Assembly (NCBI GenBank): GCA_030431355.1
Contig: JAUIJG010000136.1
Span: forward strand, 1 to 12,357
DNA: 12,357 bases
Source: a bacterium
GTDB lineage: Bacteria > Cyanobacteriota > Vampirovibrionia > Obscuribacterales > Obscuribacteraceae
Direction of reading: 5' to 3'
The stretch's first letter is position 1; the number at the start of each line of letters is the position of its first letter. The notes below the pieces were generated by a model. It searched no databases. It was not told where the DNA came from and worked only from the letters and a program-made list of their open reading frames with translations. Shown here piece by piece: positions 19-11,393 of the stretch. The translations under genes were made by a program, and so were the position numbers.

Positions 19-453
19 ATGCGTGTATTGATAGCGGTTCAAGAGCAGTACTATGCTGAGAAACAGATTGAATTTGTGCTCAATCATCATTGGGATAAGC
101 CGGTCTCCATTCTCGTTTTACATGTGGTGGAACCCCTTGAGATGGATCATCAGCATGAACCGGGCAAGAATTTGCTCACGGAGCTGCATTCCTTGCATGT
201 TGAAAATGGCTCCAAGCTGGTGAAAAGCCTGGTGCAAAAGCTTGGTCTGAAATTGCCTGGTGCCGATATCCAGGACAAAGTGGTGACAGGTTATGCCAAA
301 GAGGTCATCTTAAATGAGATCGAAACCTGGCAAGCTGATGTGGCGGTGGTGGGTTCCCACGGAAGGCGGGACATGATTCGCAAGATGATAGGCAGCGTAT
401 CATCGGCGGTTCTCGCCTACGCTCCCTGTTCGGTGATGGTTGTGAGACCCTGA
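19..453 (+). CDS. Universal stress protein, ATP-binding type
   Basis: Single-domain cytosolic USP of 144 residues, the normal family length. The C-terminal half carries the nucleotide loop G112-x2-G115-x9-G125-S126 (GSHG...GS), which in the family contacts the ATP phosphates, followed by the usual hydrophobic strand ending SVMVV. The N-terminal strand reads RVLIAVQ: the acidic residue that normally follows this strand and contacts adenine is Gln here, so ATP binding may be altered. Start is ATG 19, with an AAAGGTAGG SD just upstream and an in-frame TAG at 10-12 that excludes a longer protein. It is the first of six USP genes in the window and lies upstream of another USP and a cytochrome c on the same strand. 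Such proteins usually act as dimeric stress or dormancy regulators; the specific partner is unknown. Confidence 0.93.
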   Translation: MRVLIAVQEQYYAEKQIEFVLNHHWDKPVSILVLHVVEPLEMDHQHEPGKNLLTELHSLHVENGSKLVKSLVQKLGLKLPGADIQDKVVTGYAKEVILNEIETWQADVAVVGSHGRRDMIRKMIGSVSSAVLAYAPCSVMVVRP

Positions 454-474
454 AGTTATCGGTCTTGCTTGTCT

Positions 475-495
475 GCTCAGGGTCATCCCCATGAG
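475..495. repeat. Small inverted repeat between two USP genes
   Basis: CTCAGGG (476-482) can pair with CCC and TGAG (487-489 and 492-495) across a TCAT loop, with a two-base bulge. It lies in the gap between the first and second USP genes. There is no T-run after it, so it is not a standard terminator; it may be an operator half-palindrome or chance. Confidence 0.22.
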
Positions 496-557
496 CGATG
501 TACTAAAATTGGTTTTAAGATTTACTTGTCTTGAGGCCGTTTGGAGGTGGAAATCTA

Positions 558-1055
558 ATGCGAGTACTACTGCCTATTGATGAAGAGCCCTATACTAAAG
601 CGCAGTTGGACTTTGTCAAGTCTTACTCCTGGCCGGAGGATACCGAAATAATAGTGATGCATGTTATGCACTCGGTCATGATCGAAAGGACCATGGTCAG
701 CTCCCAGATCTACATAGATCAGATTATGAAGGACGCCCGTAAGCTCGCCAGTAAGGCCGCGGATGCCTGTATAGAGACGATTCAAAAGAGTTGTCCGCAG
801 CTGAAAGTGAAGAAAGAGTTGAAAGAGGGCGACGCCATTCGTGAGATTATCGGTTTTGCTGAAAAGTCAAGAGTCGACATGATTGTGATGGGAAGCCACG
901 GTCGAGAAGGTATCGGAAGAGTGGTATTGGGTTCGGTGGCGTACTCTGTCCTCGCTAAAGCTCCGTGCAAAACAATTATCCTGGGCTTACCCCATGTGGA
1001 AAAGGAGTACGATGAATACTGGAACCAGTCACCGGTGGCTCTAAAGCTTCAATAG
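558..1055 (+). CDS. Universal stress protein, ATP-binding type
   Basis: USP of 165 residues. ATG 558 is preferred over the upstream TTG at 531 because a strong GGAGGTGG SD (543-550) sits seven bases before it and the protein then begins MRVLLPID, the normal first beta strand with the adenine-contacting Asp. The nucleotide loop is canonical: G112-x2-G115-x9-G125-S126. The C-terminal tail after the last strand (about 20 residues, rich in Glu, Tyr and Asn) is longer than in a minimal USP. It shares the strand with the preceding USP about 100 bases upstream, and the cytochrome c gene follows 41 bases later, so the last two are probably co-transcribed. Likely an ATP-binding cytosolic stress protein. 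Confidence 0.93.
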   Translation: MRVLLPIDEEPYTKAQLDFVKSYSWPEDTEIIVMHVMHSVMIERTMVSSQIYIDQIMKDARKLASKAADACIETIQKSCPQLKVKKELKEGDAIREIIGFAEKSRVDMIVMGSHGREGIGRVVLGSVAYSVLAKAPCKTIILGLPHVEKEYDEYWNQSPVALKLQ

Positions 1056-1096
1056 AACATATTTGAGTTTCAATATATTTGTCAAAAGGAGAATAT

Positions 1097-1900
1097 ATGG
1101 GCTTCTCGGGAAAAAGGGTTTTAGCGCTCGCGGTGTCTTTTCTGGCGACCGGCTCGCTTCTTAATTGCTTTCCGCCAGCCGTCTTGGCTGCCGACAAAGA
1201 GAAGAAGGAGGCGCCGAAGAGCTATGTGCCCCAGAAGCCAAGCAAAGCATCTAAGGCGGGTCAGGTTTTTATAGCAAAGAACCAGTGCAATTTGTGTCAT
1301 ACGATTGCCGGAAAAGGGGGCTGTATCGCACCACCGCTGGATGGTATTGGAGCAAGACGTTCCCGGGATTTTCTTATCTCCCGGATCACCGATGAAGATA
1401 AAGAAGAGCAGAAGTTTCTTGAGCAATATGGGGAGAGTGAGTTAATGCCCCATGTGCGAATTCCCCGTTCCGAATCCACAAAAATCGTGTCCTACCTATT
1501 AACTCTGCCCGGACGGGAGATCAAAATGGTGGGTCACAAGAGTAAGAGCGGCCTTAGTCAGGAAAAGAAAAGAAAGCTTGAAAAGCAGTTGTCCACAGGT
1601 AAGAAACTGCCCCGCAATGAATTCGAAAAAGACGTGGAGCGCGGAAAACGCCTGGTGGCTGAAAAAGGCTGTCAGGCTTGCCATTCCATTGGCAATATCG
1701 GAGGTGACTTCGGACCTTCCCTGGATCATGTCGGCTCTAGAAAAGATATCAATGAGATTGCTGAGACGATCTTAGCTGCTGAGTTGGTCTCTCTTTCCGA
1801 CTCCCGGGAGTATGGCAAGAAGCCTGTGCGCATGCCGGCTTCGGAACTGAGCATAGGTCAGATTCGTTCAATATCCCGATTTCTAGAAACATTGAAATAG
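1097..1900 (+). CDS. Exported diheme cytochrome c
   Basis: About 267 residues. A signal peptide is clear: Arg/Lys near the start, a hydrophobic stretch at residues 8-22 and a likely A-x-A type cleavage near residues 31-32 (VLA/AD). A charged Lys-rich linker follows. Two class-I-like cytochrome c domains come next: haem motif C64-N-L-C67-H68 with candidate distal Met117, and C192-Q-A-C195-H196 with candidate distal Met246 (VRMP). The two domains are joined by a Lys/Glu-rich segment (about 145-185). ATG 1097 is chosen over TTG 1079 because AAAAGGAG (1084-1091) lies five bases upstream. Expected role is periplasmic or surface electron transfer, donor and acceptor unknown. Its place directly after a USP gene suggests respiration under stress. 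It could also be a small subunit of an oxidoreductase whose other subunits are elsewhere. Confidence 0.9.
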   Translation: MGFSGKRVLALAVSFLATGSLLNCFPPAVLAADKEKKEAPKSYVPQKPSKASKAGQVFIAKNQCNLCHTIAGKGGCIAPPLDGIGARRSRDFLISRITDEDKEEQKFLEQYGESELMPHVRIPRSESTKIVSYLLTLPGREIKMVGHKSKSGLSQEKKRKLEKQLSTGKKLPRNEFEKDVERGKRLVAEKGCQACHSIGNIGGDFGPSLDHVGSRKDINEIAETILAAELVSLSDSREYGKKPVRMPASELSIGQIRSISRFLETLK

Positions 1901-2047
1901 CAAGAGTAGTAACTCCTCAAATAGTCCATGCGGCTGATACCGGCTCCTGATACTTTCTTTATGATTTAAGTGGAGTCTTGGAATTAGTGTATTCATTGAA
2001 GTGAGCCGACAGGAGCCTATGCTCGGTCGGAGGGCGGGAGGAAGCAG

Positions 2048-2992
2048 ATGTCTCAGTTTTCTATTCTGTATGGTTTGAGTGGTTCCGAAGCGTCCAAGCA
2101 GGCTGCTGAAGTGGCTTGGAGAATCGCCGGCAACTGTGGCGGAAAAGTCGATGCTCAACATGTTATTGATTCCCGGGCTATCTGGGAGTTGTTGCGCAAT
2201 GACAAACCAGGCTTTATCGGGAGCGGGCCTTATGTGGCAGCCTATGATGAAATGTCAAAGCACCTGCGTTCCATCGCCGACAAGCTATCGGTAAAGTACA
2301 AAGCTCTTACCGAGGAGCAGAGTATTGCCGGGGAGACCTTCATAGAGGAAGGCAATCCCATAGAACTGGTTTCGAAGAGGGCAAAGAGTTATGACCTGGT
2401 GGTGGTCGGTCATCAGCCCCGGGCTCCCCTGGGCACAGAGGATCGCAAACACTATGTGCGATTTGCCGTGGCGGAAGGGCTGGCCCATGAATGTCCGACA
2501 GCTTTATTGGTGGTGCAGGATCAAGTGGAGACCTGGACTTCCTTGACCATTCTCGTATCCGTCGACCATCTCAATTATCAATTTATGGAGACCTGCCTGG
2601 ACTTTGCCTGTCTGCTTGGTGTGTCACCGAAAGTGGTGGCATTGGATAGCGGCATGGTGGATGTCTCCGGAGAAACGTTTGCCGACGATATGAGAAAAGC
2701 AATTCCCGACCTTGCCGATGTGCCGGTGGAGATCCATGAAGTGTCCGGAATGAGCGTGGAAAAGAGTGCCGGATTGTGGCACAGGGAGGAGATAAGTCTT
2801 GACTGGACGCCCGACAGCGATACTCTGCTTGTTATTCCGACACGCCGGAGCGGCAATACCAGATTGACAGTATTTGACACGGCGCCGGATATTTTTGTTC
2901 GCAATCTCACTCTCTCATCGATTATGATGTGGCCGGAAGAACACACCAGGCTCAATCTGGACAAGACCAAGATTAAGACCTACTGTGCGTGA
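2048..2992 (+). CDS. Diverged tandem USP-domain protein
   Basis: A 314-residue protein that reads as two USP-fold halves. The first (about 3-158) has the opening strand FSILYGLSGSE, a helix, and a late strand YDLVVVGH around residues 115-122 followed by a final strand TALLVVQD. The second (about 165-296) begins TSLTILVSVDH and ends with strand DTLLVIPT plus a short tail. Neither half keeps the G-x2-G-x9-G-S/T nucleotide loop: the first has GHQPRAPLG, the second PTRRSGN. ATP binding is therefore doubtful and a structural or scaffold role is more likely. ATG 2048 has a GGGAGGA SD (2036-2042). It follows the cytochrome c gene by 147 bases and is followed after six bases by a tiny membrane protein. 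Assignment to the USP superfamily is from fold-level resemblance and genomic context. Confidence 0.75.
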   Translation: MSQFSILYGLSGSEASKQAAEVAWRIAGNCGGKVDAQHVIDSRAIWELLRNDKPGFIGSGPYVAAYDEMSKHLRSIADKLSVKYKALTEEQSIAGETFIEEGNPIELVSKRAKSYDLVVVGHQPRAPLGTEDRKHYVRFAVAEGLAHECPTALLVVQDQVETWTSLTILVSVDHLNYQFMETCLDFACLLGVSPKVVALDSGMVDVSGETFADDMRKAIPDLADVPVEIHEVSGMSVEKSAGLWHREEISLDWTPDSDTLLVIPTRRSGNTRLTVFDTAPDIFVRNLTLSSIMMWPEEHTRLNLDKTKIKTYCA

Positions 2993-2998
2993 TCATTG

Positions 2999-3169
2999 AT
3001 GTTGCAAGTTCTCTCTTATTTGGCTCTGGTTGCGCTGGCTGTTATGGGCCTGAACGCAGGCGGCATGCTCGACTTTTCTCGATCGGAGTCCATTGTCGCC
3101 GTGCTGGCCCTGGTGATTGTCGGCATAGTGCTTCTGGTTTTGAAATTCAGGTCCGGGGGCGGAGGCTGA
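2999..3169 (+). CDS. Small two-helix membrane protein
   Basis: A 56-residue reading frame, MLQVLSYLAL... to a Gly-rich end (RSGGGG). It has two clear hydrophobic helices, about residues 4-19 and 31-49, joined by a polar turn containing DFSRSES. ATG 2999 begins six bases after the stop of the double-USP gene, so translation is probably coupled; there is no separate strong SD. An in-frame TTG directly before the ATG is an alternative start. The 3' end overlaps the convergent acetyltransferase gene by 23 bases. The clean alternation of hydrophobic and polar segments argues for a real gene. Family not recognised; the hairpin topology suggests a small inner-membrane partner or anchor for the neighbouring stress protein, which is inference. 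Confidence 0.68.
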   Translation: MLQVLSYLALVALAVMGLNAGGMLDFSRSESIVAVLALVIVGIVLLVLKFRSGGGG

Positions 3170-3674
3170 GCTCTATCTCGTAGGTGGAGCCGTCAGCCAT
3201 GGATTTCTGCATCGGTAGACCGCTATGGTTAAAAACCGACAACATCCTTTTGTTTTCGGTTAGCACGTAGGCGACAAATCGCTCAAGTCCGGCAGAGCGT
3301 CCTATTATTGCCAGCTGTTTCATCAGGGCTGAACCGATTCCTATTCCCTGGAAAGGATCATCCACCACGAAGGCTACCTCGGCGGTGCCCGGATTCTCTT
3401 CGGTTACTATATATCTTCCTATGGCAACGGGTTCAAGACTGCCATCTTTGTTTTCTATGCAGGCTGTAAGCGCCACATGCTTTTTAAAATCCACATGGCT
3501 CAGATATTCGAGATCTGATTCGCTCAGCTCTTTTTTGGGGCTGAAAAATCGATAATATATGGACTGCGGGCTCAGGTGCTTCCAGATAGTGGACAGAGTC
3601 TTTCTGTCACCATCTTTGAGCGGACGGATGGTGACCTCCGCCCCATTTTTGAGGCGTTCTTTAAATTTGTACAT
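3147..3674 (-). CDS. GNAT-family acetyltransferase, Pat-like
   Basis: A 175-residue single-domain N-acetyltransferase. The N-terminus (IRPLKDGD... then SPQSIYYRFFSPKKELSE) matches the style of the GNAT domain of Pat/PatZ protein lysine acetyltransferases. The acetyl-CoA pyrophosphate loop is visible as Q-G-I-G-I-G within the FVVDDPFQGIGIG segment, followed by the usual helix SALMKQLA. In that family the targets are acyl-CoA synthetases and other metabolic enzymes, and some members are fused to cAMP or CoA-ligase domains; this one stands alone. Its start ATG overlaps the stop of the upstream helical protein by one base (TGATG), a mark of translational coupling. A CoA-transferase gene lies upstream on the same strand, so acetyl-CoA metabolism is a plausible link. 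The substrate cannot be read from sequence. Confidence 0.87.
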   Translation of the reverse strand: MYKFKERLKNGAEVTIRPLKDGDRKTLSTIWKHLSPQSIYYRFFSPKKELSESDLEYLSHVDFKKHVALTACIENKDGSLEPVAIGRYIVTEENPGTAEVAFVVDDPFQGIGIGSALMKQLAIIGRSAGLERFVAYVLTENKRMLSVFNHSGLPMQKSMADGSTYEIELSLRPRT

Positions 3675-3946
3675 CAGCTTTCGTTCTGGTTACCGTCGGC
3701 TCCCTGGCTGGGATCTGAGTTTGGCTGGGAATTCTCATCCAGGCGACTCTGCAATTCATAAAGTTTGGCAAGCTCAGCCTGGAGTCCCCGGACTGCAGAT
3801 TCGGCTTCGTCCCGCTTCTTTTCCGCTCGGATCAACCCGCCTTTCAGCAAGCGTTCCGCATGGGCGAGATCGCCTTTTTCTATGAGTTGTTTGCTCAAGT
3901 CGATAAACATGAGGGTACTCTCTTCCTGGTTGTTGATGTCATCCAT
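3674..3946 (-). CDS. Small helical (TPR-like/coiled-coil) protein
   Basis: A 90-residue hypothetical protein. Residues about 11-35 (FIDLSKQLIEKGDLAHAERLL in outline) have the spacing of a tetratricopeptide-like helix pair. Residues about 38-70 are a heptad-like, Glu/Lys/Leu-rich coiled coil. The last 20 residues are Ser/Asn/Gln/Asp-rich and probably disordered. Start taken as ATG 3946; no strong SD precedes it, and an internal Met at residue 13 is an alternative. Its TGA overlaps the ATG of the GNAT acetyltransferase, so the two products are probably made together and may interact. No family recognised; a protein-protein adaptor is the most that can be inferred. Confidence 0.7.
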   Translation of the reverse strand: MDDINNQEESTLMFIDLSKQLIEKGDLAHAERLLKGGLIRAEKKRDEAESAVRGLQAELAKLYELQSRLDENSQPNSDPSQGADGNQNES

Positions 3947-4222
3947 GGATTTTCTGGTGTTGAATTTGGTGGATGCGATTATCCAATTCGAATAAGGGCA
4001 GAACTGGGCATGCTGGTCTTGTAGGTAGATTTGAAACTATTTAGGGCCTGAATCTGAAATTGATAATGTGTTGTAGATTCATTATTTGCCAGATCGCCTT
4101 ATTGAGCATCCTTCTGATTGTTGATTGGTTATTGATTTGTTGCCATGGTATCGTCCTGTAGGATGATTCGAATAATAACCCACCAGGGGAGACCTGTTTA
4201 GAGTCTTGGTTTTCGAAGGGAG
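3947..4222. other. Intergenic region upstream of the acetyltransferase pair
   Basis: A/T-rich spacer of about 276 bases. It must hold the 3' end signals of the CoA-transferase transcript and probably a promoter for the minus-strand helical protein/acetyltransferase pair. Visible structure: a 7-bp inverted repeat ATCGTCC/GGATGAT at 4150-4167 (with one G-T pair and a TGTA loop) but with no T-run, and three close copies of TGATT(G/T)(G/T) at 4115-4139. I see no convincing -35/-10 pair and no credible protein-coding frame. Confidence 0.4.
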
Positions 4223-5539
4223 CTAGAGCCAGGGCACACTGTCGCATTCTTTTTGTAAACGGTCTCTAAATTTCGGGTGAGCTATGGCGATCAAGCTTTC
4301 CGCCCGGGATTTCAAGTTCTTGCCATAGAGATCGGCGATGCCGTATTCGGTGACAATGTAGTGAACATCAGCTCGGGAAGTGACAACTCCGGAGCCTTTG
4401 CTGAGGTGGGTTACGATTCTGGAGATTTCACCATGCTTGGCCGTGGAAGGGATGGCTATGATCGGCTTCCCGCCCTTCGACCTTGCCGCGCCCCGGATGA
4501 AGTCCACCTGGCCGCCGAAGCCGCTGTAGAGCTGAATCCCCACCGAGTCGGAGCAGACCTGACCGGATAGATCGACCTGGAGGGCGGAATTTATGGCTGT
4601 CATCTTGTGGTTCTGGGAGATGATAACCGGATCATTGATGAAGTCTGTGGTCTGGAATTCAATCAGCGGATTATTGTTTACGAAGTCATAGAGTCTCTTG
4701 GTGCCCATGACAAAAGAGACGGCTATTTTTCCGGGGAGCACGGTCTTTTTGTTGCAGGTTATAACCCCGGCTTCCACCAGATCCAGCACACCGTCGGAGA
4801 ACATCTCACTGTGAACGCCGAGATTCTTTTTGTCTCTTAAATTTTGCAGTACCGCGTCTGGTATGGAGCCGATGCCCAGTTGTAAGGTGGCGTCATCTTC
4901 CACCAGGGATGCCACATTCTTGCCTATGGCCATGGATACATCATCCAGCGGTTTTGGAACATGTTCGGGTATGGGTCTGTCTGTCTCCACCACATAGTCG
5001 AGCTTGCTGGCATGGACAAAAGAGCGTCCCAGGGTACGAGGCATCTGTTTGTTCACTTCGGCTATAACGAGAGAAGCTTGCTTCCTGGCGGCGATGGTGC
5101 AGTCCACTGATACACCATAGCTACAGTATCCATGCTCATCAGGCGGTGATACCTGAATCAGGCATACATCAAGGGGCATCCTGCCGGACTCAAACATTGA
5201 AGGTATTTCGCTGAGGAAGAGGGGGGTATAGTCGGCTCTGCCTTCATTTACAGCCTCTCTCACGTTTTGTCCTATGAAAAGAGCATGCACTTTGAAGGAG
5301 TCTTTGTATTCCTTTTCAGAATAAAGAGCCGGTCCCATGGTGAGGATATGGAAAATCTCCACATTCTTCAATTCCGGTGCTCGTCTGGTCAAGGCATCGG
5401 CTAGCGGGATCGGATTGGCGGCGTTCGACTGAATATATATGCTGTCTCCGGACTTTATTTTCTTCACCGCTTCGTCAGCGCTGACAACCTTGCTTTTGTA
5501 TTCTTCCCGCCAGGAGCGGACCCCTGTGTATATGGTCAT
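4223..5539 (-). CDS. Acetyl-CoA hydrolase/transferase family CoA-transferase
   Basis: A 438-residue class I-type CoA-transferase of the family that includes 4-hydroxybutyrate CoA-transferase, succinyl-CoA:acetate CoA-transferase and so-called acetyl-CoA hydrolases; the length matches. Visible hallmarks are LGIGSIPDAV (221-230), the GVHSEMFSDG segment with the likely catalytic Glu245 that forms the glutamyl-CoA thioester, and GGQVDFIRGA (342-351). A C-terminal TEYG-IADLYG segment is also typical. It would move CoA between a short acyl-CoA and acetate or another carboxylate, which allows ATP-saving acetate or butyrate metabolism. Start ATG 5539 has an AGGCGG SD-like site seven bases upstream. 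It is cytosolic and alone in its transcript upstream of the acetyltransferase pair. The exact substrate cannot be assigned; 4-hydroxybutyrate is one option. Confidence 0.93.
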   Translation of the reverse strand: MTIYTGVRSWREEYKSKVVSADEAVKKIKSGDSIYIQSNAANPIPLADALTRRAPELKNVEIFHILTMGPALYSEKEYKDSFKVHALFIGQNVREAVNEGRADYTPLFLSEIPSMFESGRMPLDVCLIQVSPPDEHGYCSYGVSVDCTIAARKQASLVIAEVNKQMPRTLGRSFVHASKLDYVVETDRPIPEHVPKPLDDVSMAIGKNVASLVEDDATLQLGIGSIPDAVLQNLRDKKNLGVHSEMFSDGVLDLVEAGVITCNKKTVLPGKIAVSFVMGTKRLYDFVNNNPLIEFQTTDFINDPVIISQNHKMTAINSALQVDLSGQVCSDSVGIQLYSGFGGQVDFIRGAARSKGGKPIIAIPSTAKHGEISRIVTHLSKGSGVVTSRADVHYIVTEYGIADLYGKNLKSRAESLIAIAHPKFRDRLQKECDSVPWL

Positions 5540-5599
5540 AGTTAAACCGCCTGAATTTTATTAGTTGTCTAGAGAAGGGCGCCACCCGGATTAAAGTTT

Positions 5600-5626
5600 T
5601 CCTGATTTTCAGGATAATGAAATCAG
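5600..5626. promoter_or_regulatory. Nested inverted repeats in a divergent intergenic region
   Basis: CTGATTT (5602-5608) is matched by AAATCAG (5620-5626), a perfect 7-bp inverted repeat with 11 bases between. Inside it, TCCTGA-TTT-TCAGGA (5600-5614) forms a second, tight palindrome. The site lies about 60-90 bases upstream of the minus-strand CoA-transferase start and in the divergent gap before the plus-strand orphan gene. No T-run follows in either direction, so an operator is more likely than a terminator. The binding protein is unknown. Confidence 0.35.
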
Positions 5627-5731
5627 CCCGGGGAATGATCCATTGTACCGGCCTGATAGACTAACTTAGTTGATCGATGGTTTTCTTTCAGCAGGCCATC
5701 CTTCGCATCCCACAGCACTGGTATCCAAACC

Positions 5732-6205
5732 TTGGAGTTGAAGTTCCCTAACGCTCGTCTGCTGGTCTATGACCGGATCTTGAGCGGTTCTAAAAATTGC
5801 GCATCGGCCCTTGTTCAGTCTGCATATGAGACCGGAGTTCTCGCCTCCGGCAGTATGGATGATTGGTTGCAAGAGATGGAATCCGGCGGTGTCAGTGGTG
5901 CTTGCAGCGCTAGGTTGGCGGCTCGGAAGATCCTGGAGGAGAGTCTCCGTCAGTCCGGTTTGTCCGGCGCAGTACTGAGCCTTAAATTGACTGAGATTTA
6001 TGACCAGGTGGAGAAAGATCTTAATCATTACATTGAGAGAAAACAGTCGACCAGGAAGTCCGGAGCTAAAAAGGATCTTGATTGCGAGAAGTTTGAAGAG
6101 GCAAATATCGGAGAGCCGGTAAGTAAAGATAAAGAGCTGTGCGTGGATTATGCTCCTGTGGTGCTCGATCTTTTGTTACAGCAGCATATGAAGCATGGAC
6201 CATGA
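5732..6205 (+). CDS. Unrecognised helical protein upstream of Hsp20
   Basis: A reading frame of up to 157 residues with no family I recognise. Residues about 42-105 are strongly helical and amphipathic (MDDWLQEMES..., then ARLAARKILEESL and IYDQVEKDLNHYIERK in outline). A Lys/Glu/Asp-rich linker follows, then a short hydrophobic helix near the end (APVVLDLLLQQH). The start is uncertain: the frame is open back to a TAG at 5657-5659, there is no ATG before 5855, and TTG 5732 has no good SD. ATG 5855 would give 116 residues and sits five bases after a perfect 6-bp hairpin, CCGGAG/CTCCGG (5832-5850). It lies 70 bases upstream of the double-Hsp20 gene, so a shared transcript and a stress role are possible. 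The N-terminal 40 residues could be untranslated. Confidence 0.55.
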   Translation: MELKFPNARLLVYDRILSGSKNCASALVQSAYETGVLASGSMDDWLQEMESGGVSGACSARLAARKILEESLRQSGLSGAVLSLKLTEIYDQVEKDLNHYIERKQSTRKSGAKKDLDCEKFEEANIGEPVSKDKELCVDYAPVVLDLLLQQHMKHGP

Positions 6206-6275
6206 TAGTCATTTGGGTTGATGATTCTCAGCCCGGAGTCCGGTAAACTGGAATGGGTTTTGGAAGTACTTTTTG

Positions 6276-7121
6276 ATGAACAGGCAAGAAGAGTTTCGTC
6301 CTGGCTCTGATGAAGGGCTAGACGAGGTCAGGTGGCTATTTAAGCCCCTGGCTGCTCTCTCCGGCCGCCTGGCCATGATTGTCGGTGAATTCCCGCCACT
6401 TGATGTTTACAAAACCGAAGAAGGCGCGCTTCTAGTCATGGAAGCAGCCGGTATGGATGTGGACAATGTGGAGCTTAGTGCCAGGCTCAACGAGTTTGAA
6501 ATTCGGGGCGATAGAGAGGTGGAAGAAGCCAGTCATGGCTTCAGTCCGGTTCGCGTGGAACGATTTCATGGTCCATTCCAGCGTGCTCTTGAGCTTCCTT
6601 TCTATATAGACGAGGAGCAGATAAGAGCTGAATATAAAGATGGCATTCTAAGGGTTTTAATGAAAAGCTGCATGCTTCCTCGGGATGACCTGGTTCTAGT
6701 CAAGCCAAAAGTGCACGGAAGGAAAGAAGTGAAGATGCAGGAGCTTCCCGGCGGGACACTCTCTTTTCTTGAAGACAATGTTGTTCAGGGTGAGACCCGC
6801 CTCCCATCTTGCGATATCATGGAAGACAGAAGCGCATATTTGCTCTGTGTCGACCTTCCCGGAGTGTGCCAGGAGAACCTGGATATCGCAGCTACGGATG
6901 ACTCTGTCACTATATATGGTGAGCCGGGCCAGGTGGAATCAGGCAACGGATCCGACCTCGATCTTACATATGGGGAGTGTGAAAGTGGTGCCTATGGCAG
7001 GACATTTAGGCTTTCGGCGGAGGTTGACGGAAGCGGGGTCTCCTATTGCCTGGAAGACGGTCTTCTTAAAGTACGATTGCCCAAGCGCGTTATTCGACCT
7101 GACTTTCGTAAGATAAATTAG
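6276..7121 (+). CDS. Small heat-shock protein with two alpha-crystallin domains
   Basis: About 281 residues, roughly twice a normal Hsp20. The first alpha-crystallin domain (about 41-132) runs from PPLDVYKTEEG through VERFHGPFQRALELP to the signature A-x-x-x-D-G-I-L at 118-125. A linker of about 45 residues follows. The second domain (about 176-271) starts LPSCDIMEDR, keeps DLPGV and GRTFRLSAEV, and ends with the LEDGLLKVRLPK signature. The second is more diverged and carries several Cys residues. Such proteins are ATP-independent holdases that bind unfolding proteins; two domains in one chain may change oligomer assembly. ATG 6276 is preferred to the TTG just before it; GGAAG at 6262-6266 is a fair SD. 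The 3' end overlaps the convergent kinase gene by 32 bases. Confidence 0.9.
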   Translation: MNRQEEFRPGSDEGLDEVRWLFKPLAALSGRLAMIVGEFPPLDVYKTEEGALLVMEAAGMDVDNVELSARLNEFEIRGDREVEEASHGFSPVRVERFHGPFQRALELPFYIDEEQIRAEYKDGILRVLMKSCMLPRDDLVLVKPKVHGRKEVKMQELPGGTLSFLEDNVVQGETRLPSCDIMEDRSAYLLCVDLPGVCQENLDIAATDDSVTIYGEPGQVESGNGSDLDLTYGECESGAYGRTFRLSAEVDGSGVSYCLEDGLLKVRLPKRVIRPDFRKIN

Positions 7122-8715
7122 GCAGGCTAAATTGGAAGCTGCTGCCTTTGCCCAATTCGCTAGCGCACCAGATCTTGCCGCCATGGGATTCTATGATCTT
7201 GCGGCATAGATAGAGTCCCAGGCCGGTGCTGGCGTAATAGCGACCGGAGTTGGAGGCTTGCCAGAAGCGCTGGAAGAGTTTCGGCTTGTCTTCTTCGCTT
7301 ATGCCTTTGCCGTTGTCGCTTACCGAAATCAGTGTCTGGTCATCTTCTTGTTTGAGGGAGACAGTAATCGTGCCACCATAATTAGTGTATTTTAGAGAGT
7401 TGTCCAGGAGGTTTTGCAGCACCCTTTTGACTTCGTTTTTGTCACAAAGAACCAGCTCCGGAACCGGTTCATGGTTGAAAATAAGCTCTATCTGACGCGA
7501 TTGGGATAAGGGTAGGAATTCGTTGTGGATTTTAGTGAGAATCTCCACTATGTTGGCGGGGGCTTTGTTCAGTCTCTTTGTGCCGCTGTCGTATTTGTAG
7601 ACGTCCAGCAGGGTGACCACCATCTGGTACATGTCGTTATTGCTTTCTAAAATGGTTTCGACCAGCTCTTTCTGTGACTCGTCGATCTCTCCAAACTGAC
7701 CTTCATTGATCAGTCTCAGGGCACGGTTTGCCGCTATAAGAGGGGTCTTTAGATCATGGGTGAGGGTGGCGACAAAATCCTCCCTCTGCTGCTGTAGTTT
7801 GACTGTATCGGTGACATTGGTGAACATGGCCACCAATCCGGTGTTTTCGCCTGCCGGGGAGCGGGTGGGCCAGACCGCCCAGTCGAAAAATCTTAGTTCC
7901 TGAAAGTCTTTGAAAAGCAGGGGCTTAGCCGGCTCTTTGTGGGAATCTCCCTCTTTCAGCACTTTCTCAAATACCGCGGCGTCCAGGCCGGGCAGGAGAT
8001 CGAGAATGCATGTCTCTTCCAGGTTTTTGCTGTTGCTAATGCCCGCTATGGTAAGGAATTCTTCGTTGAACTCTTCCAGTAAGAACTTCTCGTTGAGGCG
8101 CACGATACCCACCGGGGCGCTCTCTAGAATACTCTTGGTTACTCGGCTTTCGGATTCGAGTCGGGAGATGGAATCCTGGGTCTTTCTGATCTCTTCTTCC
8201 TTGAAGCTGGCGTAGCTGTCTATGGCAAGACCCATGTCGAAGAATATTAATTTGATGGCGTCTCTCAGTGCTTTGGCTGCCTTGTCCGGCTCTTCCCTGT
8301 GGTGCTGTAGTAGCTTTTCTATGAACCAATCTATTACCAGGCGATAGGCGCCGAGATACCAGGTGGTATCAAGTCCGGTTCTATAGTGCACCTCTCCCAC
8401 CTTAATGCGATTGGTGACATATTCCGGACCGTAGTCGCCGTTGGTCAGTCTCAGGAAATACTTCTTCTGGGCGGCTTTCGCGCGTTCAAGAATCTCTTGA
8501 TTTGGAAAATAGCTTCGACTATGCTCATTGGCCAGAAAATGTTCATACATGCACTGCATTAAGGCATCGATATCTTCTTTCAGGATATCGTCAAGAGGCT
8601 TAATCCCTTTTTCTAGATCCTGGTCGATATCAAGCCAGTCTTTTCGTCGCTTAATCTCTTCCTGGCTGACTAATTCTTCGAAGGTTCTAGGTTTTTTTGT
8701 GGTTTCTTGAGCCAT
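7090..8715 (-). CDS. Globin-coupled sensor histidine kinase
   Basis: Soluble 541-residue sensor kinase with no membrane segments. Residues about 25-170 look like the protoglobin domain of globin-coupled sensors: Tyr57 in the MYEHFL helix is the candidate distal residue, and His110 in VGEVHYRTGLDTTWYLGAYR is the candidate proximal haem ligand. The 53-residue spacing is close to that of known globin sensor kinases and cyclases. A short coiled linker (about 171-192) leads to a PAS domain (about 193-305). Then come HisKA with phospho-acceptor His320 (THDLKTP) and a HATPase domain with N-box NLLDNSLKYT (435-444), G1 DNGKGI (467-472) and G2 STGLGLYL (496-503). It would sense O2, or NO/CO, through haem and autophosphorylate. 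It is divergent from the NarL-type regulator gene, its likely partner. Start ATG 8715 has only a weak SD. Confidence 0.9.
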   Translation of the reverse strand: MAQETTKKPRTFEELVSQEEIKRRKDWLDIDQDLEKGIKPLDDILKEDIDALMQCMYEHFLANEHSRSYFPNQEILERAKAAQKKYFLRLTNGDYGPEYVTNRIKVGEVHYRTGLDTTWYLGAYRLVIDWFIEKLLQHHREEPDKAAKALRDAIKLIFFDMGLAIDSYASFKEEEIRKTQDSISRLESESRVTKSILESAPVGIVRLNEKFLLEEFNEEFLTIAGISNSKNLEETCILDLLPGLDAAVFEKVLKEGDSHKEPAKPLLFKDFQELRFFDWAVWPTRSPAGENTGLVAMFTNVTDTVKLQQQREDFVATLTHDLKTPLIAANRALRLINEGQFGEIDESQKELVETILESNNDMYQMVVTLLDVYKYDSGTKRLNKAPANIVEILTKIHNEFLPLSQSRQIELIFNHEPVPELVLCDKNEVKRVLQNLLDNSLKYTNYGGTITVSLKQEDDQTLISVSDNGKGISEEDKPKLFQRFWQASNSGRYYASTGLGLYLCRKIIESHGGKIWCASELGKGSSFQFSLPNLSYESQVE

Positions 8716-8794
8716 GAGTTCTCTGGGATTATTACTTTTCCGCTTTTCTTATTAAGGATAAATCACCGACAGGGGGATGAAAGAGCCATAGACT

Positions 8795-8803
8795 TGCTAA
8801 TAT
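8795..8803 (+). promoter_or_regulatory. Extended -10 promoter candidate for the response regulator
   Basis: TGCTAATAT fits an extended -10 element (TGn followed by TAATAT), about 56 bases before the regulator start. The -35 position (near 8775-8780, GGATGA) is poor, as is common for extended -10 or activator-dependent promoters. The palindrome TTCCGGGAA follows directly at 8809-8817. Confidence 0.4.
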
Positions 8804-8808
8804 AAGCC

Positions 8809-8817
8809 TTCCGGGAA
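8809..8817. promoter_or_regulatory. Short palindrome TTCCGGGAA, possible operator
   Basis: TTCC-G-GGAA is a perfect 4-bp palindrome around one central base, between the candidate -10 element and the regulator start codon. The eight-base core TTCCGGGA recurs at 9658-9665 upstream of the next USP gene. It could be a site for the neighbouring NarL-type regulator; with only two short copies it may be chance. Confidence 0.28.
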
Positions 8818-8858
8818 CCTATTTGCCATTATCTTCAAATCAATGGAAGAGTGTCCAT

Positions 8859-9593
8859 ATGTCCAGCGAACAAATCAAAGTACTGATAGTAGAGGATCAT
8901 AAGCTTACCAGAATTGGTTTAAAAGCTATTCTTAAGCAAGTGTCCGACATAGATGTGGTGGGAGAAGCCGTCAACGGCAAGGAAGCCGTGGAGATGGTTG
9001 CTACTCTCCATCCCGATGTGGTCTTGATGGACGTGGGAATGCCTGTTATGGACGGCATCGAGGCGGTCAAGCTGATTCATGACAATTACAAGCAAGTAAA
9101 CACGATAATGCTTACCTCTCACGACAATGATAACGACATAGTCGCTTCATTGACCTCCGGCGCCTGTGGATACTGTTTGAAAGATGTGGATCCCGACCGT
9201 CTTTTCACCGCTATTCGCTCGGTGAACGAAGGGGATATCTGGCTCGATTCTTCCATCGCCAGTAAGCTCATGAATCTTTATTCTTTTACCGGCTCTATCG
9301 GAAACGCTCCTGGGACCGAAGAGGGAGAAGGGGCGGATCAACCCAAAGCCGCTGCGCCATCAGCAGCCCATGTAGACCAGAGCGGCTTCCCTCCCCTGCC
9401 GGACCCGCTTTCTCCGCGGGAGTTGGAGGTGTTGAATCTAATTGTGGAAGGTCATTCCAATCAGCAGATCGCCGACAAATTGATTATCTCTCTGGCCACA
9501 GCCAAGACCCATGTTCGAAATATCTTGAATAAGTTGGCCGTGGACGACAGGACCCAGGCGGCAGTGCAGGCTATGCGACGCGGCCTGGTTTAG
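8859..9593 (+). CDS. NarL/FixJ-family response regulator
   Basis: About 244 residues. The receiver domain (about 5-125) has the acidic pair E12-D13, phospho-acceptor D58 in VLMDVGMPVMDG, Thr86 and Lys108 (CLKD). A flexible linker of about 45 residues rich in Gly, Ala, Pro and Glu follows. The C-terminal LuxR-type helix-turn-helix (about 182-244) has LSPRELEVLNLI..GHSNQQIA and the recognition helix region TAKTHVRNILNKL. ATG 8859 is chosen over TTG 8823 because GGAAGAG (8845-8851) lies seven bases upstream and the protein then starts directly on the receiver domain. It is divergent from the globin-coupled kinase with 143 bases between, so the two likely form an oxygen-responsive two-component system. 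The target promoters are inferred to be the local stress genes. Confidence 0.95.
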   Translation: MSSEQIKVLIVEDHKLTRIGLKAILKQVSDIDVVGEAVNGKEAVEMVATLHPDVVLMDVGMPVMDGIEAVKLIHDNYKQVNTIMLTSHDNDNDIVASLTSGACGYCLKDVDPDRLFTAIRSVNEGDIWLDSSIASKLMNLYSFTGSIGNAPGTEEGEGADQPKAAAPSAAHVDQSGFPPLPDPLSPRELEVLNLIVEGHSNQQIADKLIISLATAKTHVRNILNKLAVDDRTQAAVQAMRRGLV

Positions 9594-9627
9594 GTAGACG
9601 AATTCCAGTACATGAGTTTGTATAGAT

Positions 9628-9672
9628 GGTAGGATCCGGTTGGATGTTCGGAAATTGTTCCGGGATACTACC
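9628..9672. repeat. Imperfect stem-loop downstream of the response regulator
   Basis: GGTAG-G-ATCC-GG (from 9628) pairs with CC-G-GGAT-A-CTACC (to 9672): about 11 base pairs with one mismatch and one bulged G. No T-run follows. An internal perfect inverted repeat, CGGAA-ATTG-TTCCG at 9649-9662, would compete with this fold and may be a protein-binding site instead. It lies between the regulator stop and the next USP gene. Confidence 0.38.
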
Positions 9673-9688
9673 TAGGGATGAAGCCGAA

Positions 9689-9702
9689 TTGATTTAATTC
9701 AA
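9689..9702. promoter_or_regulatory. FNR/CRP-like box upstream of a USP gene
   Basis: TTGAT-TTAA-TTCAA matches the FNR consensus TTGAT-N4-ATCAA with a single mismatch in the second half-site. It lies 54 bases before the USP start codon, in an A/T-rich stretch. In the family this site would give activation in low oxygen. No FNR gene is in the window, and no clear -10 element is well placed, so the call is tentative. Confidence 0.35.
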
Positions 9703-9755
9703 CTACATTTTTATTTGTAGGTGACACAGGTATCAGCTTAGAAGGGGTTTTGCCG

Positions 9756-10211
9756 ATGAAAGTAATGATTGCACTAGACGACTCTCTGTATTCCAATCAG
9801 ATCATCAAAGGCGTGTTGAAAAGACCCTGGCCGGCCAACTGTGAGTTCAAGCTCATCACCGTACTGGAGCCCCTTCATCTGAACGTTGAAGAAAGGCAGA
9901 AGAAGATGGTGAGCGAAGTCCAGGAGATGAGACGGGAAGCCGCTCGGCAGTACATGACCGACGTGAAGAAAGAGTTCGATAAGTTTGCCGGCAGCAAAGT
10001 ACATTTTGAAATCCGCGAAGGCACCCCGAGTCGGGAGATTATCGATTCGGCGGTGGAGTGGGAGCCGGATAGAATTGTTGTGGGCGCGTTCGGCAGGGGT
10101 AGCAAAGAGAGAAAGAACACTGCTGCTCTTGGCTCTACTTCCCAGACCGTGGCAACCCACTCTCCCTGCACAGTGGAAGTGATTCGTGAGCCGGTGCCGG
10201 TAAAAGTTTAG
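9756..10211 (+). CDS. Universal stress protein with enlarged nucleotide loop
   Basis: USP of 151 residues beginning MKVMIALDDS, with the normal first strand and adenine-contacting Asp. The nucleotide loop is unusual: G110-A-F-G113 is followed by twelve rather than nine residues (RGSKERKNTAAL) before G126-S127, so ATP contact may be changed. The rest of the fold is normal, with a strand DRIVVGAF and a last strand TVEVIRE. ATG 9756 is preferred to the upstream TTG 9750; AGAAGGGG lies about nine bases before it. It follows the response regulator on the same strand after 162 bases that hold a stem-loop and an FNR-like box, so it probably has its own promoter. It converges with the next USP gene. 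Confidence 0.91.
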   Translation: MKVMIALDDSLYSNQIIKGVLKRPWPANCEFKLITVLEPLHLNVEERQKKMVSEVQEMRREAARQYMTDVKKEFDKFAGSKVHFEIREGTPSREIIDSAVEWEPDRIVVGAFGRGSKERKNTAALGSTSQTVATHSPCTVEVIREPVPVKV

Positions 10212-10256
10212 AGATCGGGTTTGGGACCAGATTTGGGATCAGATTCGGGTTCAGAC
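10212..10256. repeat. Short imperfect tandem repeats between convergent USP genes
   Basis: Units of about 12 bases, AGATTTGGGATC and AGATTCGGGTTC, with a less regular first copy beginning AGATCGGGTTTGGG. They fill the short gap between two convergent USP genes and run into the end of the second. No palindrome or T-run is evident, so a terminator is not supported. Confidence 0.45.
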
Positions 10257-10736
10257 GATGATGTGATTCATCTGGTTCTGCCGTTCTTTCTTCTCTTCTG
10301 GTGTTAAAAGTGGTACCACTACAACGGAGCAGTCTCCGTTGGTGACCAGGTCCCTGGAGACGCTTCCCAGGCTCATCAAGCCTTGTTTGCCATGGGAACC
10401 CACCACAAGGAGATCCGGCTGCCAGTCTTCCATGATTGAATGTAATGCCGTGCGTGGTTCGCCTTCCACAATAAGCTCTTCTATCTTATCGGTGGCCAGG
10501 GCGACGTTTAAAATTTTAGCCAGTTGATTGAGATACTTTTTGCCTAACCTCAGCTTCTCGTCCTGGATGCTGGTCTCCTGTTCATCGCTTACCAGATTCA
10601 TATAGCTGGCGATATGAAGGGGGACGATCACATGGACCAACTTGAGGTTGGACTCTTCCGGCAGGGGATAATCTAAGAGGAAGTTGCTCAGACTTTCCAC
10701 GCAGGCTTTGTCTTGTACTGCGACTAGAACTTTCAT
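10251..10736 (-). CDS. Universal stress protein with shortened nucleotide loop
   Basis: USP of 161 residues. It starts MKVLVAVQDK: as in the first USP of the window, the adenine-contacting acidic residue is replaced by Gln. The loop G113-S-H-G116 is followed by seven residues (KQGLMSL) rather than nine before G124-S125, so ATP binding may be weakened. A charged tail (LTPEEKKERQNQ) follows the last strand. The start ATG overlaps the TGA of the upstream USP as ATGA, and GGAGG lies six bases upstream, so the two are made as a coupled pair, perhaps as a heterodimer. USPs are known to dimerise; the heterodimer is inference. Confidence 0.92.
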   Translation of the reverse strand: MKVLVAVQDKACVESLSNFLLDYPLPEESNLKLVHVIVPLHIASYMNLVSDEQETSIQDEKLRLGKKYLNQLAKILNVALATDKIEELIVEGEPRTALHSIMEDWQPDLLVVGSHGKQGLMSLGSVSRDLVTNGDCSVVVVPLLTPEEKKERQNQMNHIIV

Positions 10737-11227
10737 TGTTTTCCTCCGGTTGAACTGGAAACAGGCTCGTTCTCGATTTCGTAAGATGGGATTTTAACTA
10801 TCTCCACCGGGCACATGGCGTTTACCATCACCGATTCCGCCACGCTGCCGAGCAAAAGTCTTTTAAATCCTGTGCGTCCATGGGAGCCCATGATGAGAAG
10901 GTCCGGTTCGAAATGCTTCACTTCGTTGACTATGCACTCCCTGGCTCTACCCTGGAGAACCCGGGTTGAAATTTTGCAGCCGGACAGTTTCTTCTTGAGG
11001 GTCTCGGCGGCAAGGTCCAGGTACTGGGTTCTTTCTGCCACCAGATCTTTATTGATCTTGTTAAGGTTGAGAATATTGTTCGCGTTCCAGCCTTCGTGAT
11101 CGTAGAGACCCAGATCTATAACCGAAATCAGCGTGATGCTGGTGCCGGAGGTCCAGGGGCGTTCCGCCACGCTCTTCAGAGCTGCTTCCGAGTGCTCCGA
11201 TACATCCAGTGCCACTATTACTTTCAT
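10733..11227 (-). CDS. Universal stress protein, ATP-binding type
   Basis: USP of about 164 residues starting MKVIVALDVSEHS, the classical first strand with Asp. The nucleotide loop is canonical, G114-x2-G117-x9-G127-S128 (GSHGRTGFKRLLLGS). ATG 11227 is chosen over the in-frame ATG 11263 because AGGGGAG lies nine bases upstream and the longer form only adds a polar stretch not seen in the family. A Ser/Glu-rich tail follows the last strand. It is the first gene of the coupled USP pair and follows the hydrogenase large-subunit end by about 79 bases on the same strand, so it may belong to a hydrogenase operon. Confidence 0.93.
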   Translation of the reverse strand: MKVIVALDVSEHSEAALKSVAERPWTSGTSITLISVIDLGLYDHEGWNANNILNLNKINKDLVAERTQYLDLAAETLKKKLSGCKISTRVLQGRARECIVNEVKHFEPDLLIMGSHGRTGFKRLLLGSVAESVMVNAMCPVEIVKIPSYEIENEPVSSSTGGKQ

Positions 11228-11306
11228 TACTGGTTTCTCCCCTGAGTCACAGTGCTCATACATTTTACAGTGTTTCCCGTTGACATTGCCGGGATTTCAT
11301 ATCCTA

Positions 11307-11393
11307 TTAGTCTTTTCCTTTCTGATACCTGACTTCCACCATATGGGTGGCGCAGGTGTTGCATGGATCATAGGCCCTCACTAGAGTTTCAAG
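11307..11393 (-). pseudogene. C-terminal fragment of a group 3 [NiFe]-hydrogenase large subunit
   Basis: The last 28 residues read LETLVRAYDPCNTCATH followed by an 11-residue tail. RAYDPCxxCATH is the L2 motif of group 3 hydrogenase large subunits: the two Cys (codons at 11361-11363 and 11352-11354) ligate the Ni-Fe centre, and the His at 11343-11345 is the usual processing point where a maturation protease removes the tail. The rest of the large subunit, including the N-terminal RxCxxC Cys pair, is absent; tape-measure-like sequence stands in its place. The 3' neighbour on the same strand is a coupled pair of USP genes. I cannot separate subgroup 3b from 3d on so few residues. A functional enzyme cannot be made from what is seen here. 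Confidence 0.85.

What the first reader, a model, noticed from the sequence alone, without database searches (positions are those of the whole stretch)
19..11393. A DosR-like low-oxygen survival cluster built around a globin sensor
The window gathers six USP genes, a double Hsp20, a Pat-like acetyltransferase, a CoA-transferase, a diheme cytochrome c, the end of a group 3 NiFe-hydrogenase and a haem-sensor kinase with a NarL-type regulator. The mycobacterial DosR region has a closely similar gene set (USPs, alpha-crystallin, hydrogenase in M. smegmatis, haem-sensing DosS with NarL-type DosR). Here the sensor is a protoglobin kinase of a different fold, which suggests an analogous dormancy regulon assembled independently.
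Basis: partly seen in the sequence, partly recalled or inferred. Interest (0 to 1): 0.75.

Follow-up and report, generated by a model that had tools for sequence, protein, structure and literature searches.

The report
Globin-sensor stress regulon with shared operator
In non-photosynthetic relatives of cyanobacteria, a kinase with a haem-globin sensor and its partner regulator sit among stress, hydrogenase and electron-transfer genes, many of which share one conserved DNA switch, so that the whole looks like a separately built counterpart of the low-oxygen dormancy system of mycobacteria.

Summary
The gene list is real. The window is a 12,357-base metagenome contig whose relatives are mostly Obscuribacterales (Melainabacteria). 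It holds six USP genes, a diheme cytochrome c, GNAT, CoA-transferase, double Hsp20, a protoglobin-HisKA kinase and a divergent NarL-type regulator. Only about 31 codons of a group 3 hydrogenase remain, fused in frame to a 318-codon stretch without any relative found (probable chimeric contig end).

A de novo search found one palindrome, ATCRTYC-N4-GRAYGAT. A matrix trained on 39 related loci, without the window, finds it in 6 of 8 upstream regions here (2,000 permuted matrices: mean 0.04, none reaches 6). It replicates in four unseen loci. Genome-wide the exact pattern is enriched only where the globin kinase occurs (80 sites, control 2; elsewhere 31, control 41). Its axis lies 31 bases before a -10 box, about -42.5, as for a class II activator. 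It also precedes related NarL regulators, some paired with globin-free kinases, which suggests that NarL binds it.

I read it as a DosR-like regulon with another sensor fold, kinase class and operator. Oxygen response and its direction are inferred, not shown.

The parts
19..453 (+). USP 1 (promoter off the contig)
   Evidence: Pfam PF00582 9.7e-21
480..501 (.). operator upstream of usp2-cytochrome c; predicted -10 TTTACT at 521-526
   Evidence: PWM 11.6 bits; -10 offset
531..1055 (+). USP 2 (true start probably the ATG at about 558, since the predicted -10 is at 521-526; inference)
   Evidence: Pfam PF00582 2.3e-20
1079..1900 (+). diheme cytochrome c
   Evidence: Pfam PF00034; two CxxCH
1919..1940 (.). 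operator upstream of the double USP; predicted -10 TATGAT at 1960-1965
   Evidence: PWM 14.3 bits
2048..2992 (+). USP 3, 314 aa, double-USP length; Pfam matches one USP stretch only
   Evidence: Pfam PF00582 1.2e-08; family with 20 loci
3147..3674 (-). GNAT acetyltransferase, nearest NCBIfam model mycobacterial Pat (below cut-off)
3674..3946 (-). small protein, weak TPR-like match, probably co-transcribed with GNAT
   Evidence: below cut-off
4106..4127 (.). second operator upstream of small-GNAT; predicted -10 AATAAT at 4081-4086 (minus)
   Evidence: PWM 12.3 bits
4148..4169 (.). strongest operator in the window, upstream of small-GNAT; no good -10 at the fixed offset (CCAATC)
   Evidence: PWM 21.8 bits
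4223..5539 (-). acetyl-CoA hydrolase / CoA-transferase family enzyme
   Evidence: Pfam PF13336 8.1e-68; TIGR03948 329 bits, cut-off 675 not met
5620..5641 (.). operator in the divergent region CoA-transferase / unknown-157
   Evidence: PWM 16.7 bits; weak -10 candidates on both strands, AAAACT and CTAACT
5732..6205 (+). conserved protein of unknown function, all-helical model, invariant Cys58 and Cys137
   Evidence: 23 loci; alignment A1; model pLDDT 84
6203..6224 (.). operator upstream of the double Hsp20; predicted -10 TAAACT at 6244-6249
   Evidence: PWM 12.6 bits
6273..7121 (+). protein with two Hsp20 stretches
   Evidence: Pfam PF00011, 2 stretches
7090..8715 (-). protoglobin-(PAS-like)-HisKA-HATPase sensor kinase; distal Tyr57, proximal His110, phosphoacceptor His320
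   Evidence: Pfam; 2w31, HemAT, AfGcHK matches; conservation
8823..9593 (+). NarL-type response regulator, phosphoacceptor Asp70
   Evidence: Pfam; conserved recognition helix
9663..9684 (.). operator upstream of USP 4; predicted -10 TACATT at 9704-9709
   Evidence: PWM 12.4 bits
9750..10211 (+). USP 4
   Evidence: Pfam PF00582 7.5e-17
10251..10736 (-). USP 5, no operator of its own
   Evidence: Pfam PF00582 2.6e-17
10733..11263 (-). USP 6, no operator of its own, 43 bases behind the hydrogenase stop
   Evidence: Pfam PF00582 1.3e-23
11307..11401 (-). C-terminal tail of a group 3 NiFe-hydrogenase large subunit
   Evidence: NLETLVRAYDPCNTCATHMV shared with L002 and L031; PDB hydrogenase matches, best E 0.012
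11402..12356 (-). unrelated open frame fused to the hydrogenase tail; probable chimeric contig end
   Evidence: no relative found; GC 0.457 against 0.495

Best explanation
The window is the core of a two-component stress regulon of Obscuribacterales. A soluble kinase senses a gas ligand, most likely O2 (possibly also NO or CO), with an N-terminal haem globin domain, and passes phosphate through its HisKA domain to the divergent NarL-type regulator. The phosphorylated regulator binds as a dimer to ATCRTYC-N4-GRAYGAT centred near -42.5, overlapping the -35 region, and activates sigma70-type promoters of USP-cytochrome c, double USP, GNAT, CoA-transferase, unknown-157, Hsp20 and USP units here, and in relatives also P-type ATPase, PEP synthase, some hydrogenase operons and distant genes such as rubredoxin-hemerythrin. 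The programme probably runs when oxygen is short, sparing energy and disposing of electrons through H2 and fermentation. Shown by sequence: gene content, conservation, operator, its association with this system, promoter geometry, intact haem and phosphotransfer residues. Inferred: binding by this regulator, activation, O2 as the ligand, and induction at low oxygen.
For: De novo palindrome (window included in that search). PWM trained on 39 loci without the window: 197 noncoding sites at 9 bits or more, against mean 13.4, maximum 23 for 30 permuted matrices. Window: 6 of 8 upstream regions at 11.5 bits, 0 of 2,000 permutations reach 6. Four unseen loci: 19 noncoding sites at 10 bits against mean 1.07, maximum 5 of 200 permutations. 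Exact pattern genome-wide: kinase-positive genomes 80 sites in 30 of 40, control 2; kinase-negative 31 sites in 30 of 342, control 41. Genes with a site (own or operon head): double USP 26 of 26, USP 60 of 81, unknown-157 18 of 23, P-ATPase 11 of 14, PEP synthase 7 of 9, cytochrome c 12 of 18, GNAT 4 of 4; for comparison other families 94 of 189, single genes 83 of 230. TAnnnT at one fixed offset in 26 of 218 oriented sites, mean 1.6% over offsets, P about 3e-15 before correction for the offsets scanned. NarL relatives chosen on sequence alone: 5 of 5 paralogues and 3 of 6 deeper relatives carry a site upstream. Haem residues present in 42 of 47 aligned kinases, regulator Asp in 44 of 44.
Against: No binding, expression or ligand data. 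AfGcHK is active with O2 bound and inactive as deoxy-Fe(II) (PMC8697598, passages), which predicts the opposite sign if copied. 10 of 40 kinase-positive genomes have no exact site. Kinase and regulator lack an operator (0 of 39, 3 of 38), hydrogenase subunits mostly too (large 1 of 10, small 2 of 9), and CoA-transferase (4 of 11) is not above the other genes; but three of four hydB genes with visible upstream DNA have a site. Distant globin kinases (about 40% identity) show no enrichment (1 site against 0.29). Most kinase-positive records share one order, so another co-inherited regulator is possible. Sites called coding are also somewhat enriched (114 against 77.9 at 9 bits), in part through false ORF calls. 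11 sites fall in convergent regions (permuted 0.9). In the window only 3 of 8 oriented sites have TAnnnT at the fixed offset.
Confidence: 0.7

Rival explanations
1. The regulon is real but is driven by another transcription factor of the same order that binds the palindrome; the globin kinase and NarL regulator are neighbours with other targets.
For: Kinase and regulator genes rarely have a site themselves. Recognition-helix variants do not separate cleanly: TVKSHV regulators lack the motif in L071-L073 but have it in L157.
Against: The site precedes NarL paralogues in 5 of 5 genomes chosen on the regulator alone (permuted mean 0.11, but maximum 5, since these loci are related), and deeper relatives in 3 of 6. 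FNR boxes are at chance level, and the motif's half-sites point the other way from FNR/CRP half-sites (recalled).
Confidence: 0.19
2. The system is O2- or redox-activated, like AfGcHK, and the regulon protects respiring cells against oxidative or nitrosative damage rather than preparing for anoxia.
For: AfGcHK is active as Fe(III) and Fe(II)-O2; remote targets include rubredoxin-ScdA_N-hemerythrin, a repair-type protein (role recalled), and a reductase fused to rhodanese.
Against: Hydrogenase, CoA-transferase, PEP synthase and multiple USPs are typical of energy-limited low-oxygen programmes (recalled; PMC8125079 and PMC6127331 passages); in Myxococcus the related sensor feeds a pathway whose target mxan_4236 rises under hypoxia.
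Confidence: 0.25
3. The palindromes are terminator hairpins or repeated elements, not operators.
For: Inverted repeat with a 4-base centre; 11 sites in convergent regions, where 0.9 are expected.
Against: Density is higher upstream of genes (3.6 and 3.0 per kb in divergent and tandem regions, 1.1 in convergent), a -10 box stands at one fixed offset, and the exact pattern is not enriched in genomes without the system.
Confidence: 0.03

Closest known systems
Mycobacterial DosR/DevR-DosS/DosT regulon
   Same: Haem sensor kinase plus NarL-type regulator; USPs, heat-shock proteins and, in M. smegmatis, hydrogenases (PMC8125079 and PMC10034137, passages); a palindromic operator upstream of scattered units.
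   Different: Globin instead of GAF sensor and HisKA instead of HisKA_3 kinase (DosS features recalled); operator ATCRTYC-N4-GRAYGAT, DosR box at chance level; regulator scores VraR 158, NarL 119, DevR 102 bits; the pair itself mostly lacks the operator.
Globin-coupled histidine kinases: AfGcHK and NmpU of the NmpRSTU system (Myxobacteria)
   Same: Globin-domain sensor with proximal His and distal Tyr on a histidine kinase; the Nmp regulon includes a USP, a P-type ATPase and a hemerythrin (PMC11841059, abstract, passages and sections 16, 17, 22).
   Different: There the output is an NtrC-like regulator at sigma54 promoters, reached through a hybrid kinase, operator GCGCA-N5-TGCGC; here a PAS-like stretch follows the globin and the partner is a single NarL-type regulator with a class II site.
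lxa (low-oxygen-activated) locus of Burkholderia cenocepacia
   Same: Six USPs, a heat-shock protein and a cytochrome c in one locus (PMC6127331, passages).
   Different: The passages seen name no globin kinase; its regulator was not compared here.
VraR / NarL family response regulators
   Same: Receiver plus GerE helix-turn-helix.
   Different: Partner kinase is of HisKA type, while NarL-type regulators usually pair with HisKA_3 kinases (recalled).

Membership tests
DosR/DosS system | NarL-type response regulator | tested here: met
   Response_reg plus GerE; DevR 3c3w is a match, though not the best
DosR/DosS system | GAF-domain haem sensor on a HisKA_3 kinase (definition recalled) | tested here: not met
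   Protoglobin and HisKA, no GAF or HisKA_3 match listed
DosR/DosS system | DosR box GGGACTNNAGTCCC upstream of targets (sequence recalled) | tested here: not met
   4 matches with up to 3 mismatches, 5.2 expected
DosR/DosS system | regulator controls its own operon (PMC10034137, passages) | tested here: not met
   no site at 8716-8822; 0 of 39 kinases, 3 of 38 regulators in the loci
DosR/DosS system | induction by hypoxia, NO or CO | not testable with these tools
   no expression data
Globin-coupled sensor kinases | globin domain with proximal His and distal Tyr on a histidine kinase | tested here: met
   PF11563 3.5e-32; nearest solved globin is 2w31, then others including HemAT and AfGcHK; both residues in 42 of 47
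Globin-coupled sensor kinases | haem binding and ligand-dependent kinase activity | not testable with these tools
   needs protein
NmpRSTU | NtrC-like sigma54-dependent output regulator | tested here: not met
   output is GerE type, -10 of sigma70 type
lxa locus | orthologous regulator and gene order | not tested
   not compared
NarL/FixJ response regulators | receiver domain with phosphoacceptor Asp plus LuxR-type helix-turn-helix | tested here: met
   Asp in 44 of 44 aligned

The most novel reading that the evidence does not exclude
The NarL regulator and its operator are older than the globin sensor: in deeper members of the class the same operator stands before a related regulator that is paired with a globin-free HisKA kinase, so Obscuribacterales seem to have captured a globin sensor for an existing regulator-operator circuit and built a convergent DosR regulon around it, with a HisKA-to-NarL pairing.
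Probability: 0.35. Interest if true: 0.72.

Novelty: new variant of a known kind. Interest (0 to 1): 0.62.

Why it matters
It would give a predicted operator and regulon, with promoter geometry, for a haem-globin sensor in the non-photosynthetic sister lineage of cyanobacteria, where my paper searches listed none (the lists of 68 and 69 showed 10 of 2,160 and 12 of 342 papers). It would also be a second, separately built route to the USP-Hsp20-hydrogenase survival programme known from mycobacteria. That makes the question of why these genes keep being grouped directly testable, with named sites.

Tried and rejected
Rejected: DosR box and FNR box as the shared element, both at chance level. Rejected: general operator control of kinase and regulator. 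The distant globin kinases in G130, G044, G050 gave no motif enrichment. I first thought that the regulator's recognition helix sorts genomes with and without the motif; L157 (TVKSHV with a site) contradicts this. The unknown-157 model has no PDB fold match (best E 3.1), so its function stays open. Relatives of the unrelated open frame at 11402-12356 were sought in proteins, IMG/VR and phages without result. BLAST between the two Hsp20 halves gave nothing; the repeat rests on Pfam's two stretches. L097 was first taken for a beta-eliminating lyase by size; Pfam found no family there.

Rows dropped: L040-L042 (Calothrix, Bacteroidota) were left out of matrix training and densities. L071-L073 were counted apart. 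In one search entries with the prefixes L040, L041, L042, L028|14, L007|21, L099 and L088 were removed before alignment. Of 33 remote regions with an exact site (L078-L110), I scanned with Pfam neighbouring proteins of 14: four gave the rubredoxin fusion, two a beta-eliminating lyase, one each a reductase-rhodanese, a di-haem oxidoreductase, DUF2934 and a PaaA_PaaC protein, and four no family (L080, L097, L104, L105); the other 19 were only labelled by local BLAST. L146, L147 and G078:C5 were chosen knowing the motif and are not counted in the unbiased tests. The dyad search that seeded the consensus included the window; the matrix training did not. The offset test used sites 20-250 bases before a start and counts a site in a divergent region once per direction.
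Full report
What is there. The window is a whole metagenome contig of 12,357 bases (P0001 is listed with that contig length). The globin kinase's relatives in one-genome-per-species data are mostly titled Obscuribacterales, Melainabacteria or Cyanobacteria, at 46-53% identity for the full-length ones; a few are titled only as uncultured bacterium or bacterium, and L033 as Proteobacteria. In the protein database the nearest is 80% identical, and 1,057 of 7,991 scored candidates reach E 0.001.

The end of the contig. The last open frame (11307-12356) is hydrogenase only for its last ~31 codons. L002 and L031 share NLETLVRAYDPCNTCATHMV with it. For the other 318 codons the searches found nothing, and their GC is lower (0.457 against 0.495). 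In relatives, hydrogenase large and small subunits stand near the kinase in 10 and 9 loci, of a sulfhydrogenase-like (3b) type or, where NuoF-like subunits are present, a Hox-like (3d) type (the group names are my assignment). So a hydrogenase belongs to this neighbourhood, but the fusion is probably an assembly chimera. I could not test this without reads.

Conservation. Loci holding each family, over 42 loci plus the window: kinase 38, regulator 37 (including the unrelated protein of L042), USP 30 (81 genes in that cluster), unknown-157 23, double USP 20, diheme cytochrome c 15, P-type ATPase 12, CoA-transferase 11, hydrogenase large subunit 10, PEP synthase 9, GNAT 4. HypF and a hydrogenase maturation protease also occur. 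The double Hsp20 matched no place in the fetched loci.

The shared palindrome. Counting perfect dyads in regions with a gene start, window included, gave one family of words, TATCATCC-N4-GGATGATA and its shifts, at the top. At up to 3 of 16 mismatches there are 16 noncoding and 14 coding matches, against 0.4 and 2.95 for shuffled palindromes. A symmetric matrix of 22 positions trained on 39 loci without the window has 13.9 bits and 197 noncoding and 114 coding sites at 9 bits, against means of 13.4 (maximum 23) and 77.9 for 30 column-permuted matrices; noncoding DNA is about 100 kb, coding about 590 kb. In the window, 6 of 8 upstream regions carry a site of 11.5 bits or more: usp2-cytochrome c, double USP, small-GNAT (two sites), CoA-transferase/unknown-157, Hsp20 and usp4. 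Permuted matrices give a mean of 0.04 and none of 2,000 reaches 6; outside these regions there is no site at that score, and one at 10 bits (6670, inside the Hsp20 gene). The two negative regions are kinase/regulator and usp6. usp1 could not be judged, because its upstream DNA is cut off.

Replication and specificity. Four loci not used in training (L074-L077) have 19 noncoding sites at 10 bits, against a mean of 1.07 and maximum 5 in 200 permutations. Across 382 genomes of the class, the exact pattern occurs 80 times in 30 of 40 genomes with the globin kinase (reversed-pattern control 2), and 31 times in 30 of 342 without it (control 41). I defined the 40 as G001-G037, G061, G110 and G147; G033, G034 and G037 hold only fragments of the kinase. 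The three genomes with a distant globin kinase (G044, G050, G130) and G038 count among the 342. Site density at 10 bits is 1.8 per kb noncoding in kinase loci and 0.43 in the flanks of remote sites; the permuted matrices give about 0.08.

Which genes. With a site at 10 bits before the gene or its operon head: double USP 26 of 26, GNAT 4 of 4, P-type ATPase 11 of 14, unknown-157 18 of 23, PEP synthase 7 of 9, USP 60 of 81, cytochrome c 12 of 18. The comparison groups in the same loci are 94 of 189 (other families) and 83 of 230 (single genes), so the neighbourhood as a whole is rich in sites. CoA-transferase (4 of 11), hydrogenase small (2 of 9) and large (1 of 10) subunits, regulator (3 of 38; the 38 include two proteins that are not NarL-type) and kinase (0 of 39) are not above these groups.

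Promoter geometry. Among oriented sites 20-250 bases before a predicted start the median distance is 86 bases. Relative to the axis, a hexamer TAnnnT stands at one offset in 26 of 218 sites, with mean 1.6% over all offsets (P about 3e-15 for that offset, before correction for the offsets scanned), preceded by an enriched TG. Counted from the hexamer, the axis is at about -42.5, the class II activator position, where the site replaces the -35 box. In the window 7 of 8 oriented sites have T as the last base of that hexamer and 3 of 8 have TAnnnT; the strongest site, 4148, has neither. These positions lie outside the matrix, so they are separate evidence.

Who binds it. Second NarL copies (64-66% identity), chosen on the regulator sequence alone, have a 20-21 bit site upstream in 5 of 5 genomes (permuted mean 0.11, maximum 5; the loci are related). 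Deeper relatives (about 50-53% identity) have a site before the regulator in 3 of 6 and before the kinase in 2 of 6. The kinases beside the deeper regulators that I scanned (L141, L153, L154, L157) have no globin domain by Pfam, and three of them have PAS. The recognition helix is nearly the same in the globin pairs (SLATAKTHVRNILNKL and close variants). Regulators with TVKSHV beside the distant globin kinases come without the motif, but L157 with TVKSHV has it. This ties the operator to the NarL clade more than to the globin, but it is correlation.

Wider regulon. Remote exact sites precede rubredoxin-ScdA_N-hemerythrin proteins in four genomes (L081, L094, L098, L103), beta-eliminating lyases in two (L087, L092), a reductase-rhodanese (L108) and a di-haem oxidoreductase family protein (L091). 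Of five hydB genes, one starts at the contig edge; of the other four, L005, L016 and L031 have a site before them and L023 has none.

Sensor chemistry. The globin is closest to 2w31 (a sensor globin; G. sulfurreducens origin recalled), then a stressosome-type protein, HemAT, protoglobin and AfGcHK. Distal Tyr57 and proximal His110 are kept in 42 of 47 aligned kinases; the exceptions are two gapped entries and L029, L039 and L096, which have other residues. L029 is a second copy in genome G025. The kinase His is present in 47 of 47 and the regulator Asp in 44 of 44.

Sign of the response. AfGcHK autophosphorylates with O2, CO or ferric haem and not as deoxy-Fe(II) (PMC8697598, passages). In Myxococcus a homologue is wired through a reciprocal kinase, and a target of the pathway rises under hypoxia (PMC11841059, abstract and sections 16, 17, 22). 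Here the chain seems direct, so low-oxygen induction requires a kinase with DosS-like sign, or control by phosphatase activity. I favour low oxygen because of the target genes, but this is the weakest link.

Comparison. It works like the DosR system and is not a member: sensor fold, kinase class, operator and autoregulation differ. It is a globin-coupled sensor kinase by domain content. The paper searches listed no account of this regulon; some lists were capped, and subscription papers are mostly not in that library.

Noticed in passing
window 11402-12356, minus: A 318-codon open frame without any relative found is fused in frame to a hydrogenase tail; probably a chimeric contig end, possibly an unknown mobile or phage gene.
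   Followed up: partly
window 5732-6205: A conserved protein family (23 loci, 18 of 23 with an operator) with an all-helical model, invariant P6, R9, C58, C137, D146, L149 and Q150 in 22 aligned sequences, and no Pfam, NCBIfam or PDB fold match.
   Followed up: partly
L029:9944-11569 (+) and its neighbour regulator: A second protoglobin kinase in genome G025 has lost both haem-pocket residues (K and D instead of Y and H), and its regulator has TVKTHV in the recognition helix: perhaps a haem-free paralogue.
   Followed up: partly
L145-L147, L149-L152: A second NarL copy (64-66% identical) stands beside USP genes in six of these seven stretches (not L147), with no kinase labelled there, and a strong operator before it in all seven (two chosen knowing the motif): possibly a feedback or amplifier regulator.
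   Followed up: partly
L081, L094, L098, L103: Rubredoxin-ScdA_N-hemerythrin fusion proteins with an exact operator upstream, on contigs or stretches other than the kinase locus.
   Followed up: partly
L033: A record titled Proteobacteria carries the kinase (53% identical), regulator, USPs, double USP and cytochrome c; probably a misnamed bin.
   Followed up: no
L015:9870-10448 (-), family of 11 loci: A small conserved family labelled 'recomb' in my scripts; the member scanned has no Pfam match, and 9 of 11 have an operator before the gene or operon head.
   Followed up: no
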